From the NCBI GenBank assembly GCA_016929195.1, contig JAFGJG010000171.1, forward strand, positions 1-34,804: 34,804 bases of DNA. Direction: 5' to 3'. The notes below the pieces were generated by a model. The model was not told where the DNA came from. It worked only from the letters and a program-made list of their open reading frames with translations, and searched no databases. The stretch comes from Thermoleophilaceae bacterium (lineage in GTDB: Bacteria; Actinomycetota; Thermoleophilia; Solirubrobacterales; Thermoleophilaceae). This document shows positions 786 to 34,804 of this stretch, in pieces; position 1 is the stretch's first letter; each line of letters begins with the position of its first letter. Position numbers and translations under genes: made by a program.

Positions 786-1961
786 CTAGCCCGCGGCGCT
801 GCAGAAGAGCTCGTAGTCCGGGAAGACGCCCATCTCCTCGTCGGAGATCGAGTCTGGGTCCCGGGAGCAGATCGGGCACTCGGGGTCGCGCCGGACCTTC
901 AGCTCGGTGAAGGTCGTGCCCAGCGCGTCGTAGAGCAGCAGGCGGCCGGCCAGGGGGTCGCCGGCGCCCGTGATCAGCTTGATCACCTCGACCGACTGGA
1001 GCAGGCCCATCACGCCCGGCAGCACGCCGAGCACGCCGGCGGCGCCGCAGCTCGGGGCGAGCTCGGCGGGCGGCGGGGTCGGGTAGAGGCAGCGGTAGCA
1101 CGGGCCCTCGTATGGGTGGAAGACCGAGAGCTGGCCCTCGAAGCCGAGAATGGACGCGGAGACAACGGGAATCTGGAGCCGCACCGACGCGTCGTTCAGC
1201 AGGTAGCGCGTGGGGAAGTTGTCGAGCCCGTCGACGATGACGTCGTAGCCCTCGATGATCTCCATGATGTTCGAGGCGTCGAGGCGCACGGGGTACTTCT
1301 CGACCTTGACCTCGGGGTTGATCTCGTGGACCGAGATCTCCGCCGAGTCGACCTTCGGAACGCCCACGCGGTCGTTCGAGTGGGCGACCTGGCGCTGGAG
1401 GTTGGAGAGGTCGACGACGTCGTTGTCGACGATCCCGAGCGTGCCCACCCCGGCCGCGGCCAGGTACAGGGCCGCCGGTGAGCCGAGCCCGCCGGCGCCG
1501 AGCAGCAGCACCTTCGCGTCGAGCAGCTTCAGCTGCCCCTCGAGGCCGACCTCGGGGATGAGCAGGTGGCGCGAGTAGCGCTCGCGCTGCTCGGCGGTCA
1601 GCGCCCGCGGGACCTCGACGTCGTAGCCGCGGTCCTTCCAGAGCGTGATGCCGCCGCGCATCGACTCGACGTTCTCGTAGCCGAGCAGCTCCTGCATCGT
1701 GTGGGCGGCCAAGGCCGAGCGGTTGCCCGACTGGCAGTAGAGGATCACGTGGGAGGAGCGGTCGGGCGCGGCGCCCTCGATGCGCTGCTCGAGATACGAG
1801 CGCGGAACGTGCACGGCGCCCGGGATGTGGGATTCCTCGAACTCGTTCTGCTCGCGCACGTCGACGATCACGGCGCCGTTGCCGTTGTCGTGGACGTCGC
1901 GGGGATCCACCTCGCGGACCCCCTCCTTCATCCTGCGGATCAGCTCCGCACCGCTCGCCAT
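786..1961 (-). CDS. moeB: Rhodanese-MoeB/ThiF fusion: sulfur-carrier-protein adenylyltransferase
   Basis: 391 aa. Residues about 20-115 are a rhodanese domain with active-site loop CQSGNRS (Cys76). Residues about 125-391 are an E1-like adenylyltransferase: nucleotide loop GAGGLGSP (155-162), SNLQRQ, DGLDNFPTRY, zinc cysteines CYRC (288/291) and CPIC (362/365), and Cys305 in the SCGAAGVLGVLPG segment where MOCS3/MoeZ-type enzymes carry the catalytic cysteine. Proteins of this class adenylate the C-terminal glycine of a ubiquitin-like sulfur carrier (MoaD, ThiS or CysO type) and the rhodanese part supplies persulfide sulfur. The rhodanese is N-terminal here, whereas MOCS3/MoeZ carry it at the C-terminus. 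No carrier gene lies nearby, so the pathway (molybdopterin, thiamine or cysteine) is open. The ATG follows an AGAGG site. A TACACT -10-like hexamer lies at 2010-2015 on this strand. Confidence 0.9.
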   Translation of the reverse strand: MASGAELIRRMKEGVREVDPRDVHDNGNGAVIVDVREQNEFEESHIPGAVHVPRSYLEQRIEGAAPDRSSHVILYCQSGNRSALAAHTMQELLGYENVESMRGGITLWKDRGYDVEVPRALTAEQRERYSRHLLIPEVGLEGQLKLLDAKVLLLGAGGLGSPAALYLAAAGVGTLGIVDNDVVDLSNLQRQVAHSNDRVGVPKVDSAEISVHEINPEVKVEKYPVRLDASNIMEIIEGYDVIVDGLDNFPTRYLLNDASVRLQIPVVSASILGFEGQLSVFHPYEGPCYRCLYPTPPPAELAPSCGAAGVLGVLPGVMGLLQSVEVIKLITGAGDPLAGRLLLYDALGTTFTELKVRRDPECPICSRDPDSISDEEMGVFPDYELFCSAAG

Positions 1962-2055
1962 TTCGCCTCTTAACTCCCGAAAGTTGGCCTGGATTCCAAT
2001 ACTTCAAAAAGTGTAGCGCCCTCGCGCGGTATCGCACGGCGCGAATTCGCCTCCG

Positions 2056-2221
2056 AAAAGCTACCGGGGCGCCCGTAGGCGCCCCGGTACCGAAGACCCA
2101 GACCAATCTTCTGCGGAAGCCTGCGGCGAGTCGCCTCGCCACTGAAGCCTCACGAGGATTCTCGTCCTTGCGAAGCCGTGCCGATATGGGTTGGAGACCC
2201 CATATGTACGTCCAGGCACGG
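2056..2221 (-). ncRNA. Candidate structured small RNA (hairpin array ending in a terminator)
   Basis: The 284-bp gap between the divergent moeB and histidine-kinase genes holds a run of hairpins: CCGTGCC (2176-2182) with GGCACGG (2215-2221) enclosing ATATGGG/CCCATAT (2184-2190/2199-2205); ACGAG/CTCGT (2152-2156/2161-2165, 4-nt loop); GGCGAG/CTCGCC (2125-2130/2135-2140, 4-nt loop); CTTC/GAAG (2108-2111/2116-2119); and the 12-bp stem 2062-2089. GAAGCC occurs at 2116, 2144 and 2172, exactly 28 nt apart, and GAAGAC at 2092; on the minus strand these read GGCTTC between hairpins. The minus strand ends with the GC-rich stem followed by GCTTTT, so an RNA of about 140-170 nt on that strand is the simplest reading. 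The alternative is a plus-strand structured leader of the kinase operon. I match it to no known RNA family. Boundaries are estimates. Confidence 0.4.
2062..2089 (-). terminator. 12-bp perfect GC-rich stem-loop with T-run on the minus strand
   Basis: TACCGGGGCGCC (2062-2073) is the exact reverse complement of 2078-2089, with loop CGTA. Reading the minus strand, the stem is followed by GCTTTT, as in an intrinsic terminator; reading the plus strand there is no T-run. It sits between two divergent genes, where neither needs a terminator. This suggests that something upstream on the minus strand, possibly the small RNA described here, is transcribed and ended before moeB. Confidence 0.55.
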
Positions 2222-2245
2222 AACCGATTCAAGGACAGACCGAGG

Positions 2246-3241
2246 ATGACGCGCCGCGACGACTCGCTGATCGGCCAGGTCGTGGCCGCCAATGTGCTGC
2301 TGGTCGCGCTCACGCTGCTCGCGGCGAGCCTCGTCGCTGGGCTCGACCTGCAGGTGCCGAGCGAGCGCTGGCAGTTCCTCGTCCTCGCCCTGGCGATCAT
2401 CCTCACGCTCTGCGTGAACATGTGGATGCTCCAGCGCCGCTTCAAGCCGCTGGAGCGGCTGATCGAGCGCATCGAGCAGGTGGACCCAGCCGCCCCCGGC
2501 GCGCTGGAGCTGACCTCGTCCCAGAAGCCGGCCGAGGAGATCTCCCGGCTCGCCGAGTCCTTCCGGCGCCTGCTGGAGCGCGTGGAGCAGGAGCGCCGCC
2601 GCTCGGGCCAGCTCGTGATCCGCGCCCAGGAGGAGGAGCGCCGCCGGCTGGCGCGGGACCTCCACGACGAGGTGAACCAGGCGCTCACCGCGATCCTGCT
2701 GCGACTCGAGGCGCTGGCGCAGGAGGCGCCGCCCGGGCAGGCGCCGGAGGTCGCCGAGCTGAAGCGCCTGGTGAACCAGGCCATGGACGAGCTGCTCAAC
2801 CTCGCCCGCCAGCTGCGCCCCTCGGCGCTCGACGACCACGGGCTCGTCCCGGCGATCGACGCCCAGCTGAAGCGCTTCTCCGCCCGCACCGGCGTCGAGG
2901 TGCGCATGAACGCGGAGGGCGACATCGACTCGCTCGAGGAGGACGTGCAGACGGCGATCTACCGCGTGGCCCAGGAGGCCGCGACGAACGCGGAGCGCCA
3001 CGCGGGCGCGACCGTCGTCGAGGTGGACCTCGAGGTCTCCGACGAGCGCACGCAGCTGCGCGTACGCGACGACGGCAGCGGCTTCGACCCGGGCCGCGCC
3101 GGGCGCTCGAACGCGCAGGACCCCGCGGACAGCGGCCTCGGCCTGCGCGGGATGGCCGAGCGGGCGCGGCTCGTGGGCGGCGAGCTCGACGTGCGCTCCG
3201 CACCCGGCGGCGGCACCTCCGTCACGCTGAGCATCCGATGA
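2246..3241 (+). CDS. NarL-family sensor histidine kinase (HisKA_3 type)
   Basis: 331 aa from ATG 2246, chosen because AAGGA (2231-2235) lies 10 nt upstream and because the frame's earlier starts (2168, 2204) lie in the hairpin-rich leader. Two membrane helices (about residues 10-32 and 42-62) bracket a very short external loop. A HAMP-like linker (about 63-115) and a coiled segment follow. The dimerisation/phosphoacceptor helix reads RRLARDLHDEV, with His140. The ATPase part has an N-box QEAATNAERH, DDGSGFD, and GLGLRGMAERA. With so little outside the membrane it probably senses a membrane or intracellular signal. The stop overlaps the response-regulator start (ATGA), so the two are translationally coupled and form a cognate pair. 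The signal is unknown. Confidence 0.9.
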   Translation: MTRRDDSLIGQVVAANVLLVALTLLAASLVAGLDLQVPSERWQFLVLALAIILTLCVNMWMLQRRFKPLERLIERIEQVDPAAPGALELTSSQKPAEEISRLAESFRRLLERVEQERRRSGQLVIRAQEEERRRLARDLHDEVNQALTAILLRLEALAQEAPPGQAPEVAELKRLVNQAMDELLNLARQLRPSALDDHGLVPAIDAQLKRFSARTGVEVRMNAEGDIDSLEEDVQTAIYRVAQEAATNAERHAGATVVEVDLEVSDERTQLRVRDDGSGFDPGRAGRSNAQDPADSGLGLRGMAERARLVGGELDVRSAPGGGTSVTLSIR

Positions 3242-3873
3242 TCCGCGTGCTGATCGCGGACGACCACGGGATCGTCCGCTCGGGGCTGCGGATGCTGATC
3301 GACCGCCAGCTCGACATGGAGGTGGTGGCCGAGGCGACCGACGGCGTCGGCGCGCTCGAGTCGACCCAGCTCGCCCACCCCGACGTGGCCGTCCTCGACG
3401 TGTCGATGCCGCGCATGACGGGCCTCCAGGCCGCGCGTGAGATCCGCGCGCACGCGCCCGACACGCGCGTGCTGCTCCTCTCGATGCACGACGACGCGCA
3501 CTACTTCCTGGAGGGCCTCGACGCCGGCGCCGCCGGCTACGTGCTCAAGCGCGCGGCCGACACCGACCTGATCGAGGCGCTCCGGGCCGTCGCCGCCGGG
3601 CGCACGTTCCTCTCGAGCGAGGCCCAGCGCCAGCTGATGGAGCAGTGGCTCGAGGGCGAGGGCCCGGACGTGAAGGACCCGCTCACCCCGCGCGAGCGCG
3701 AGGTGGTCAAGCTGATCGCCGAGGCGTACACGAACCGGCAGATCGCCGAGACGCTGAAGGTCTCGGAGAAGACGGTCGAGTCGCACCGCGCGAACGTGCT
3801 CTCGAAGCTCGGGATGCGCGACCGCGTGGAGCTCGCCCGCTACGCGATCAGGCAGGGGCTGGTCGAGCCCTAG
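3238..3873 (+). CDS. NarL/LuxR-type response regulator
   Basis: 211 aa. The receiver domain (about 1-120) has the acidic pair DD at 8-9, phospho-acceptor Asp54 (AVLDVSMP), switch Ser82 and Lys104 (GYVLKRA). A C-terminal LuxR helix-turn-helix (about 147-205) reads LTPREREVV, then IAETLKVSEKTVESH. It is a DNA-binding transcription factor activated by phosphotransfer from the kinase encoded just upstream, with which it shares 4 nt. Targets are not evident from position alone; the next genes (GNAT, Sco-like) run in the same direction but the Sco-like gene has its own promoter-like hexamer. Confidence 0.93.
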   Translation: MIRVLIADDHGIVRSGLRMLIDRQLDMEVVAEATDGVGALESTQLAHPDVAVLDVSMPRMTGLQAAREIRAHAPDTRVLLLSMHDDAHYFLEGLDAGAAGYVLKRAADTDLIEALRAVAAGRTFLSSEAQRQLMEQWLEGEGPDVKDPLTPREREVVKLIAEAYTNRQIAETLKVSEKTVESHRANVLSKLGMRDRVELARYAIRQGLVEP

Positions 3874-4385: not shown

Positions 4386-5006
4386 GTGAACCCACGCGTG
4401 CTGATCGCGCTCGTCCTCGTGGCCGTGTTCGCGCTCGGGGCGACGGTCCTCGCCGCGGCCGGCTCGGACGACGAGGAGCCCGTCAGCGGGAGCAGCAAGT
4501 TCGAGGGCGCCGTGATGCCGAAGGGCCTGAGGGCGCCCGACTTCGAGCTCCGCAACCAGGACGGCGAGACCGTGTCGATGCGCGGCCTGCGCGGCAAGCC
4601 GGTGGTCGTGACCTTCCTCTACACGCACTGCGAGGACACCTGCCCGGTGCAGGCTCAGACGGTGAGGGGCGCCCTCGACCAGCTCGGCCACGACGTGCCG
4701 GCGCTCGCGATCGCGGTCGATCCCCCGCGCGACACCGAGGCGAGCGCGCGCGCCTTCCTCTCGGAGCAGCGCGCGCTCGGGCGCATCGACTTCGTGCTCG
4801 GCACCCGCGAGCAGCTGAAGCCGGTCTGGGACGGCTTCCACATCGCCCCGCAGAAGGCGAGGCAGGAGCACCAGGCGCGCTTCACCCTCGTGGACGCGGA
4901 GGGCTACCAGCGCGTGGGCTTCCCGGGCTTCGCGGCCACGCCGGAGGGGGTCGCGCACGACCTCCGGCTGCTCGAGGACGAGGCGCGTATCCTACCTCCC
5001 AGGTAG
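4386..5006 (+). CDS. Sco1/SenC/PrrC-like thiol protein, membrane-anchored
   Basis: 206 aa from GTG 4386. An N-terminal hydrophobic segment (about 5-25) is followed by a thioredoxin fold. The motif THCEDTCP carries Cys82 and Cys86 in the Sco CxxxCP arrangement, and His162 precedes FTLVDAEG where Sco proteins have their third copper ligand. All three copper-binding positions are present. Sco proteins deliver copper to the CuA centre of cytochrome oxidase or reduce its thiols on the outer face of the membrane. No oxidase genes are in the window, so the partner is unknown. The end of the gene, including its TAG stop, is built into the palindrome controlling the next operon (4991-5007). Confidence 0.85.
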   Translation: MNPRVLIALVLVAVFALGATVLAAAGSDDEEPVSGSSKFEGAVMPKGLRAPDFELRNQDGETVSMRGLRGKPVVVTFLYTHCEDTCPVQAQTVRGALDQLGHDVPALAIAVDPPRDTEASARAFLSEQRALGRIDFVLGTREQLKPVWDGFHIAPQKARQEHQARFTLVDAEGYQRVGFPGFAATPEGVAHDLRLLEDEARILPPR

Positions 5007-20213: not shown

Positions 20214-20942
20214 GTGAGCGTCAACGATCTCGTGCTCGTCCAGGGCATGCACGACACCCGGTTGGCGCTCGAGCGGTGGAACCGGGAGCCGTGGAAGGTG
20301 ATTCGCCCCTGGCTCCTGCTCAGCATCGGCATCGCCGTGCTGCTGCTCGTGGCCGTGTTCGTGATCGCGACCCTCACGACGCCCGACAGCTCGCGCTACA
20401 TCCTGCCGGGCGTGAACAGCGACGCCACGATCTCGGACTACGCTCACGTGCTGTTCCGGAACTCGCTCGTGCTGGCTCTTCACGCCATGGCCTGCGTGGC
20501 CGGCTTCATGGCCGGGAGCGCCCTACCCCTGTCCGCCTCGCACCGCAGCGGAGTCGACCGCTGGGTTCACGAGAAGGCCGGCCGCTTCGCGATCGTCTTC
20601 GTGCTCTGCGCGACCGCGTTCTCGCTCTGCACGCAGGCCTACGTGATCGGCTCGGGGGCGGCGACGATCGCCCACCAGCTCGGCATGAGCCCGGGCGCAC
20701 TGATCCTCTCCCTGCTCCCGCACGCTCTGCCCGAGCTGGTTGCGCTGTTCCTGCCGCTCGCCGCGTGGATCGTGGCGAGCCGGCGGGACGAGTGGCAGGA
20801 CCTGCTCGCCGCCACCGCCGTGACCGTGGCGATCGCCGTGCCCACCCTGCTGGCCGCCGCCGCGGTCGAGATCTGGGTCTCGCCGCAGATCATGCTGGGC
20901 CTCGCCACGCACAACCCCCCGCTGCTCGGCGGGCCCTACTAA
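20214..20942 (+). CDS. SpoIIM-like (stage II sporulation protein M family) membrane protein
   Basis: 242 aa from GTG 20214. About five hydrophobic helices: 32-54, 79-102, 122-145, 160-190 and 200-230. The segment LLPHALPELVALFLPLAAW matches the PHG/PHALxE signature of the SpoIIM/DUF95 family. The family takes part in engulfment in spore formers, but most members occur in non-sporulating bacteria with unknown function, so no sporulation role is claimed. The N-terminal 25 residues are soluble. GATGCT lies 6 nt before the GTG as a weak -10. A strong hairpin follows the stop. Confidence 0.65.
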   Translation: MSVNDLVLVQGMHDTRLALERWNREPWKVIRPWLLLSIGIAVLLLVAVFVIATLTTPDSSRYILPGVNSDATISDYAHVLFRNSLVLALHAMACVAGFMAGSALPLSASHRSGVDRWVHEKAGRFAIVFVLCATAFSLCTQAYVIGSGAATIAHQLGMSPGALILSLLPHALPELVALFLPLAAWIVASRRDEWQDLLAATAVTVAIAVPTLLAAAAVEIWVSPQIMLGLATHNPPLLGGPY

Positions 20943-20945
20943 GCA

Positions 20946-20973
20946 AACGGGGCGGCCCGAAGGCCGCCCCGTT
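20946..20973. terminator. 12-bp perfect stem-loop between convergent genes
   Basis: AACGGGGCGGCC (20946-20957) pairs perfectly with 20962-20973 around CGAA. It follows the SpoIIM-like stop by 3 bp and lies 29 bp beyond the stop of the opposite gene. It probably ends transcription from both sides; T-runs are short (GTTCT on plus, GTTTG on minus). Confidence 0.7.
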
Positions 20974-21001
20974 CTGATGCTTCGTCTCGGGCGCTAGGCC
21001 G

Positions 21002-21814
21002 CTAGCACTTCTTCTGCTTCGTGGCCTTGAACACCTGACCCTGCTCATCCGTGAACGTGGCCTGGATGGTGCGCTTGCCGCCCTTGCATCCGATCGAGGA
21101 GTAGAAGCCGACCTTCCGGCTCTTGCCCTTGATCTTCACCTTGCCGGTCTTCTTCAGGATCTTGGAGACCGTGTTGCGGACCGTCGTGTCGAGACCCGAC
21201 GGGTGCAGCAGCTCCGGCGGCACCGTGAAGCGCAGGTCGGAGGCCGGGAGGCCGCCGATCTTCGTCTTGACGAACTTCGCCTTGATGGCGCCGTGAATCG
21301 GCGTCGGGCAGTTGATCGTCTTGTCGTTCGGGTCGGAGAGCTGCGGCTCCTTCGGGTCACCGTCGAGACGGATCGCCATGCCACCGTTCTTGCCCATGCC
21401 GCTGATGTTGTAGAGACCGAGCTTCAGGTTGCAGAAGATCTTCGTGGTCGGCACCGAGGCCGGGCCGACGACGTTCTGAACCAGGCCGGAACCTACCTTG
21501 GCCTTGTTGCACTTCGGGTCGATCGTTCCGTCACGGTTGGCCTGCGAGTACGTGCAGGACTTCGCGACCTTCGGGTACGTGACGAGCCCCTCGGACCCGA
21601 TCGCGTACGTTTCGATCGGCGTCCCGCGAACGGACGGATCGTCGCTCTCGACCTGGAAATCGAAGCCGAGGGCGATCGGCAGCGGCTTGGCCACGGAGCC
21701 CTTGCCGCTCGGCTTGGTGCTGCCGTCGACCGTGTACACGTTCGCGGCAAGCGCGATGCCCGCGAGGGCCAGCGCTGAAATCGCAGTCAATGCTGCGATG
21801 GAAAGCTTTCGCAT
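21002..21814 (-). CDS. Unknown secreted protein with six cysteines
   Basis: 270 aa. A clear signal peptide (about 1-23, LALAGIALAA) and a strong ribosome binding site AGGAGGAGGA directly before ATG point to a well-expressed exported protein. The mature part is basic and beta-rich, with six cysteines (in SCTYS, PKCNK, IFCNL, NCPTP, GCKGG and the very last residue), enough for three disulfides. The C-terminal third is Lys-rich (KKTGKVKIKGKSRKVGF). Repeated phrases such as GTIDPKCNKAKVGSGLVQNVVG resemble proteins I associate with Thermoleophilia secretomes, but I do not know a function. Base composition is less GC-extreme than the neighbours, fitting either strong codon selection or a different origin. 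Confidence 0.75.
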   Translation of the reverse strand: MRKLSIAALTAISALALAGIALAANVYTVDGSTKPSGKGSVAKPLPIALGFDFQVESDDPSVRGTPIETYAIGSEGLVTYPKVAKSCTYSQANRDGTIDPKCNKAKVGSGLVQNVVGPASVPTTKIFCNLKLGLYNISGMGKNGGMAIRLDGDPKEPQLSDPNDKTINCPTPIHGAIKAKFVKTKIGGLPASDLRFTVPPELLHPSGLDTTVRNTVSKILKKTGKVKIKGKSRKVGFYSSIGCKGGKRTIQATFTDEQGQVFKATKQKKC

Positions 21815-34752: not shown

Positions 34753-34804
34753 ACCGCAGGAGCTCGGCGGCCACGAGCTCCGCGGCGCCCGACGTGGCGC
34801 CGTG
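34718..34804 (-). CDS. Possible 3' end of a minus-strand gene running off the window
   Basis: On the minus strand 29 codons run from the window edge to TGA (34718-34720), beginning with G/C-ending codons and reading GATSGAAELVAAELLRFSG. It would overlap the end of the last pilin gene by 35 bp. Too short to assign; equally possible that the gap is non-coding. Confidence 0.25.
   Translation of the reverse strand, partial: HGATSGAAELVAAELLRFSGPAPARSGG

What the first reader, a model, noticed from the sequence alone, without database searches (positions are those of the whole stretch)
2056..2245. Hairpin array with three GAAGCC motifs exactly 28 nt apart: candidate new small RNA
Seen: at least five hairpins in about 160 nt between two divergent genes, GAAGCC at 2116, 2144 and 2172 (28-nt steps), GAAGAC at 2092, and on the minus strand a 12-bp terminator-like stem followed by GCTTTT. 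On the minus strand each hairpin is separated by GGCTTC, an arrangement suited to an RNA with repeated exposed binding motifs. Inference: either a 140-170-nt sRNA ending before moeB or a structured leader of the kinase operon. I match it to no family I know.
Basis: partly seen in the sequence, partly recalled or inferred. Interest (0 to 1): 0.75.

Follow-up and report, generated by a model that had tools for sequence, protein, structure and literature searches.

The report
Two-component-controlled small RNA, Solirubrobacterales
Between a molybdenum-cofactor gene and a sensor-kinase operon of a soil actinobacterium lies the gene of a previously undescribed small RNA of about 95 nt, which relatives keep next to the sensor with a fixed regulator-binding site, so it is probably an RNA output of that sensing system.

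Summary
On the minus strand the region holds a free-standing small-RNA gene: an operator-like palindrome (2186-2203), a -10-like element (2163-2158), an RNA of about 95 nt (about 2151 to 2056) and an intrinsic terminator (2089-2062).

The unit lies beside a NarL-type sensor-kinase/response-regulator operon across the order Solirubrobacterales. In 58 loci the operator and the -10 element are the conserved parts. Their centre-to-start distance is 31.5 bp in nearly all, which puts the operator about 43 bp upstream of the start. The distance to the kinase gene varies from 8 to 62 nt.

In Thermoleophilaceae the operator occurs in exactly the 22 of 31 genomes that keep this kinase. Six genomes have a second RNA copy with its own operator beside SCO1/SenC and moeB. 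Six loci have a convergent gene after the terminator, so the RNA is not a moeB leader.

The three GAAGCC copies at 28-nt steps are not conserved; the third lies inside the promoter.

Best reading: the response regulator activates a trans-acting sRNA. In Solirubrobacteraceae it carries repeated CCUCC (anti-Shine-Dalgarno) motifs. No Rfam family matches. Transcription, regulator binding and targets are inferred.

The parts
2056..2151 (-). Predicted small RNA, about 95 nt; 5' end near 2151-2150, 3' end in the T-rich tail at 2061-2056
   Evidence: A1 alignment and model R1: window 2159-2056 minus, 71.6 bits; the window is one of the model's own sequences; start inferred from the -10 position
2062..2089 (-). 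Intrinsic terminator, 12-bp perfect stem, GCTTTT tail on the minus strand
   Evidence: consensus stem with 6 of 12 pairs showing changes on both sides; tail T counts
2158..2163 (-). -10-like element GAGAAT of the RNA promoter (consensus CCGAYANT across the order; degenerate here)
   Evidence: 58-locus position profile; distance to operator
2181..2203 (.). Operator-like palindrome CCGATATGGGTTGGAGACCCCAT (core ATGGGGT-N4-ACCCCAT, one mismatch here), inferred response-regulator site centred about 43 bp upstream of the RNA start
   Evidence: 22 of 31 family genomes, reversed-pattern control 1 hit; profile
2095..2104 (-). GGTCTGGGTC, conserved sequence just upstream of the terminator in Thermoleophilaceae and, in altered form, in the second RNA copies
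   Evidence: not clearly unpaired in folds
2116..2149 (-). Central hairpin; its outer stem is formed by the two GGCTTC copies (GAGGCTT with AGGCTTC)
   Evidence: mean z -0.72 over 18 loci
2172..2177 (+). Third GAAGCC, in the promoter spacer between operator and -10; not part of the RNA
2246..3241 (+). Sensor histidine kinase (HisKA_3, HATPase_c), divergent from the RNA
3238..3873 (+). NarL/LuxR-type response regulator (Response_reg, GerE), inferred activator of the RNA
4386..5006 (+). SCO1/SenC family protein; in relatives the second RNA copy and operator lie beside its homologue
786..1961 (-). moeB (ThiF plus rhodanese); own promoter-like TACACT near 2011-2016, downstream of the RNA terminator
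   Evidence: promoter-like sequence seen in relatives

Best explanation
It is the gene of a free-standing, trans-acting small RNA (about 95 nt, minus strand, about 2151 to 2056), made divergently from the kinase-regulator operon. Proposed working: the kinase phosphorylates the NarL-type regulator; its dimer binds the palindrome ATGGGGT-N4-ACCCCAT centred about 43 bp upstream of the RNA start and recruits polymerase to a promoter that has a conserved -10 but no recognisable -35; transcription stops at the GC-rich hairpin; the RNA then pairs with ribosome-binding sites of mRNAs (in Solirubrobacteraceae through repeated CCUCC, which could pair with GGAGG; in the window's family through the conserved GGUCUGGG and CUUCCG stretches) and lowers their translation. 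Shown: the conserved sequence unit, its geometry, its co-occurrence with the kinase, its second copies, its terminator. Inferred: transcription, regulator binding, base-pairing targets. My estimates: sRNA gene with its own promoter and terminator about 0.9; controlled by the adjacent two-component system about 0.8; acts by pairing with ribosome-binding sites about 0.45.
For: Conserved beside the kinase in relatives from several families. Over 58 loci only operator, adjacent TATCGGC and CCGAYA -10 are strongly conserved, with a variable spacer and variable flanks. Operator centre to -10 start is 31.5 bp in 18 of 22 Thermoleophilaceae loci (19 if the -10 of L028 is read as GAAAAT), in 15 of 16 Solirubrobacteraceae-type loci and in 4 of 6 second copies, 30.5 in the other two, while the distance to the kinase homology start varies from 8.5 to 61.5 nt. 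Operator plus spacing plus -10 as one pattern: 46 hits in 232 genomes against 4 for the reversed pattern. Operator present in exactly the 22 of 31 family genomes with the kinase orthologue. Second RNA copies with operator in six genomes, beside SCO1/moeB in the four read. Terminator stem with double changes in 6 of 12 pairs and T-richer tail on the minus strand. Convergent genes after the terminator in L051, L053, L059, L072, L088, L103. CCUCC 18 against 2.5 expected in 11 Solirubrobacteraceae-type RNAs, none of 300 shuffles as high, in hairpin loops in L068, L069 and L075.
Against: No expression data. In the window itself operator and -10 are degenerate (one mismatch; GAGAAT). The regulator's DNA specificity is inferred from linkage, and co-occurrence with the kinase is confounded by adjacency. 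Loci share ancestry, so the fixed geometry is not 58 independent facts. In Thermoleophilaceae CCUCC is only mildly enriched (5 against 1.9) and the conserved GGUCUGGG is not more unpaired than the rest (0.34 against 0.39), so the anti-Shine-Dalgarno step is weak for the window's RNA. T-tails are short. Solirubrobacter species keep the kinase and an operator-like palindrome without the RNA.
Confidence: 0.75

Rival explanations
1. It is the 5' leader of moeB: a transcription attenuator in which the GC-rich hairpin stops or permits read-through into moeB.
For: In the window and many relatives moeB lies about 100 nt after the terminator on the same strand.
Against: The unit stays with the kinase where moeB was not found beside it (L057, L059-L064, L072) and where a convergent gene follows the terminator (L051, L053, L059, L072, L088, L103). 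moeB has its own conserved promoter-like sequence downstream of the terminator (TATACTTT-type).
Confidence: 0.07
2. It is a structured 5' leader of the kinase operon on the plus strand.
For: Plus strand also folds better than shuffles (z -4.35); the element is next to the kinase in most loci.
Against: T-rich tail is on the minus strand; kinase starts lie 8-62 nt from the operator and several look leaderless; operator to minus-strand -10 distance is the fixed one.
Confidence: 0.04
3. A regulator-controlled RNA that titrates an RNA-binding protein rather than pairing with mRNAs (as RsmY/RsmZ do).
For: Control by a NarL/GacA-type regulator, multiple copies, repeated loops in L068/L069.
Against: The repeated loop motif is CCUCC, not GGA; GGAGG is absent from the Solirubrobacteraceae-type RNAs (0 against 1.0 expected). 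No protein partner was looked for.
Confidence: 0.1
4. It is a short protein-coding gene, not an RNA.
For: The window RNA holds a 30-codon GTG frame.
Against: The frame is not conserved; relatives have different starts, frames and lengths, and insertions are not in threes.
Confidence: 0.02

Closest known systems
csRNAs of the CiaRH two-component system (Streptococcus; PMC3091779)
   Same: Small RNAs in intergenic regions, each with a response-regulator-activated promoter followed by a terminator; several copies; bodies diverge while promoter signals persist; sequences complementary to Shine-Dalgarno sites in unpaired stretches.
   Different: CiaR (an OmpR-type regulator, from my own knowledge) uses the direct repeat TTTAAG-N5-TTTAAG; here a NarL-type regulator and an inverted repeat. 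Expression and regulation are proven there, inferred here.
RoxS/RsaE (Firmicutes; ResDE/SrrAB-controlled; PMC4409812)
   Same: Two-component-activated sRNA with several C-rich regions able to pair with Shine-Dalgarno sequences; redox-related setting (here SCO1, Rrf2 and an ABC ATPase that looks like SufC nearby).
   Different: No Rfam match of any kind; different phylum; RoxS is not known to me to lie divergent from its kinase genes.
RsmX/RsmY/RsmZ under GacA (Pseudomonas; PMC2375449)
   Same: NarL/GacA-family regulator, palindromic upstream activating sequence, more than one sRNA copy.
   Different: Those act through multiple unpaired GGA motifs on RsmA/CsrA; no such repeat here.
DrrS (DosR-regulated sRNA, Mycobacterium tuberculosis; PMC5360333)
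   Same: Actinobacterial sRNA under a NarL-family response regulator.
   Different: No sequence comparison was made; different locus and gene order as far as I know.

Membership tests
Any Rfam 15 family | Match at or above gathering score | tested here: not met
   0 matches in the window and in L068, L069, L125, L145; best sub-threshold match 15 bits
Two-component-controlled sRNA (functional class) | Response-regulator site at an activator position upstream of the promoter | tested here: inconclusive
   A palindrome centred 31.5 bp upstream of -10 in nearly all loci; that the regulator binds it is inferred
Two-component-controlled sRNA (functional class) | Own terminator, no dependent downstream gene | tested here: met
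   (sequence evidence only)
Two-component-controlled sRNA (functional class) | Transcript lost when the regulator is deleted | not testable with these tools
   needs a cultured relative
csRNA (CiaR) | CiaR direct repeat TTTAAG-N5-TTTAAG in the promoter | tested here: not met
   Inverted repeat ATGGGGT-N4-ACCCCAT instead
csRNA (CiaR) | Anti-Shine-Dalgarno sequence in unpaired regions | tested here: inconclusive
   CCUCC enriched in Solirubrobacteraceae-type RNAs and in loops of L068/L069/L075, mostly paired in L071; weak in the window's family
RsmY/RsmZ | Multiple unpaired GGA motifs | tested here: not met
   No excess: GGAG 3 against 4.1 expected in Solirubrobacteraceae-type RNAs; 9 against 17.6 in Thermoleophilaceae
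RoxS/RsaE | Match to the RoxS/RsaE covariance model | tested here: not met
   no match in scans of all Rfam models; that the library holds this family was not checked

The most novel reading that the evidence does not exclude
A two-component system whose main conserved output is an RNA: in the window's family the operator occurs essentially once per genome (beside its own operon) or twice (mostly with a copy of the RNA), so over an order of actinobacteria the regulator-operator-promoter geometry is kept while the RNA body, and perhaps its targets, is rewritten from family to family, including forms with two to four hairpins that show CCUCC in the loop.
Probability: 0.4. Interest if true: 0.75.

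Novelty: new member of a known kind. Interest (0 to 1): 0.6.

Why it matters
Small RNAs of the class Thermoleophilia appear undescribed (the paper searches made here gave none). This one has a promoter signature that can be searched directly, a probable regulator encoded next door, and a setting (SCO1/SenC, Rrf2, a SufC-like ATPase, MoeB/rhodanese) that suggests a redox, copper or iron-sulphur response. Cultured Solirubrobacterales with the unit exist (Paraconexibacter antarcticus, Svornostia abyssi), so it can be tested.

Tried and rejected
28-nt GAAGCC spacing as a functional repeat: not conserved, third copy in the promoter spacer. moeB attenuator and kinase leader: see rivals. Short coding frame: not conserved. 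Rfam with lax threshold: only chance matches. Wider regulon through the short core TGGGGT-N4-ACCCCA in the window's genome: 3 sites against 2 for the reversed control, so uninformative. Weaker matches of model R1 elsewhere (L130-L137, L141; window 20877-20980): most share only the GGGGCGCC terminator hairpin, without operator or -10, and were not counted as copies, except that L130 (contig edge, upstream missing) may be a real second copy. Structure-aware MAFFT was not available, so covariation of the central hairpin could not be tested well; the automatic alignment supports only the terminator. Operator-like hits in Solirubrobacter (L172) precede a protein gene that looks leaderless; not followed.

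Full report
Observation. The 190-nt stretch folds better than all 200 shuffles on both strands, more so on the minus strand (z -5.87 against -4.35). The 12-bp stem 2062-2089 followed by GCTTTT on the minus strand carries most of this. The 28-nt spacing of GAAGCC is rare in shuffles (2 of 5000) but equally spaced triplets occur in 30 of 1822 windows of the same DNA, and no relative keeps it. The copies at 2116 and 2144 are the two arms of one outer stem and the copy at 2172 is in the promoter spacer.

Setting. The window belongs to a Solirubrobacterales actinobacterium (nearest named relatives are Thermoleophilaceae). The stretch separates moeB (ThiF plus rhodanese, minus strand) from a plus-strand series: sensor kinase (HisKA_3/HATPase_c), NarL-type response regulator, GNAT acetyltransferase, SCO1/SenC protein, Rrf2 regulator and an ABC ATPase that looks like SufC.

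Conservation. Searching with the kinase gave 71 named loci and matches in 141 of 232 genomes of the order. Reading their upstream regions showed the same order of parts beside the kinase in many of them: terminator hairpin, RNA body, -10-like element, operator palindrome. In the window's family the RNA body keeps a hairpin closed by GARGCUU/AGCUUC-type arms in several members, then CUUCCG(A)CAG, then GGUCUGGG, then the terminator. The terminator shows changes on both sides in 6 of 12 pairs.

Which strand and which unit. The T-rich tail follows the stem on the minus strand (73 T against 31 T in 10-nt tails of 21 loci). In L051, L053, L059, L072, L088 and L103 the next gene after the terminator is convergent, and moeB was not found beside it in L057, L059-L064 and L072, so the unit ends at its terminator and is not a moeB leader.

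Promoter geometry. Over 58 loci the information content is concentrated in ATGGGGT-N4-ACCCCAT, the adjoining TATCGGC and the -10-like CCGAYA; the spacer and the upstream flank are near background. The operator centre lies 31.5 bp before the -10 in 18 of 22 Thermoleophilaceae loci (30.5 in three; the fourth, L028, also gives 31.5 if its -10 is read as GAAAAT), in 15 of 16 Solirubrobacteraceae-type loci, and at 31.5 or 30.5 in six second copies. That is about 43 bp upstream of a start placed 7 nt after the -10, the usual place for an activator that overlaps the -35 region (established knowledge of bacterial activators). The kinase homology starts 8.5 to 61.5 nt from the operator, so the geometry constrains the RNA promoter, not the kinase gene. 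The pattern operator-N23-CCGAYANY occurs 46 times in 232 genomes against 4 for the reversed pattern, and extends the unit to a further family.

Link to the two-component system. In the 31 genomes of the family the extended operator is found in exactly the 22 with a close kinase orthologue and in none of the other nine. In G004, G007, G015, G020, G022 and G023 a second RNA copy with operator, -10 and terminator lies away from the kinase; in the four whose frames were read it lies between a SCO1/SenC-like gene and moeB. These copies keep a UCUUGGGUC-like stretch before the terminator.

How it may act. In Solirubrobacteraceae-type loci the RNAs begin near GUGCAGCA and are rich in CCUCC (18 against 2.5 expected in 11 RNAs). 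In L068, L069 and L075 this motif sits in the loops of small hairpins such as AGGUUU-CCUCCA-GAACCU. This is what one expects of an RNA that pairs with Shine-Dalgarno sequences, as proposed for streptococcal csRNAs (PMC3091779) and shown for RoxS (PMC4409812). In the window's family CCUCC is only mildly enriched and the conserved GGUCUGGG stretch is not specially unpaired, so the target-binding part of the window's RNA is not identified.

Verdict. A new small-RNA gene, probably activated by the neighbouring response regulator; a new RNA family of a known functional kind. Nothing here shows transcription, binding or targets.

Noticed in passing
L068, L069, L075 (Solirubrobacteraceae-type loci, upstream of the kinase): The homologous RNA holds three or four CCUCC motifs, most of them shown in hairpin loops (AGGUUU-CCUCCA-GAACCU type): a clear repeated-motif hairpin array, unlike the window's copy.
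   Followed up: partly
L124, L125, L126, L127, L128, L129: Second copies of RNA plus operator away from the kinase locus, between a SCO1/SenC-like gene and moeB, in six genomes; protein frames were read for L124-L127, L128/L129 inferred from sequence likeness.
   Followed up: partly
window 2007-2024 (minus strand): Conserved moeB promoter-like sequence GCTAYACTTTYTGAAGT downstream of the RNA terminator, seen in many relatives.
   Followed up: no
L172 and G219:C96, G221:C92, G224:C688 (Solirubrobacter): A GGGT-N4-ACCC operator-like site 23 nt before CCGATACC, followed in L172 by a protein gene that looks leaderless, in a genus where the kinase locus of other species lacks the RNA.
   Followed up: no
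window 20877-21019 and 34772-34804; many sites in relatives: GGGGCGCC/GGCGCCCC hairpins recur as terminator-like elements and match model R1 weakly on both strands.
   Followed up: partly
L065, L067, L070, L101 (Solirubrobacter): Kinase locus keeps an operator-like palindrome but lacks the RNA; the palindrome lies upstream of a CCGATGA-like element facing the kinase, suggesting autoregulation only.
   Followed up: no
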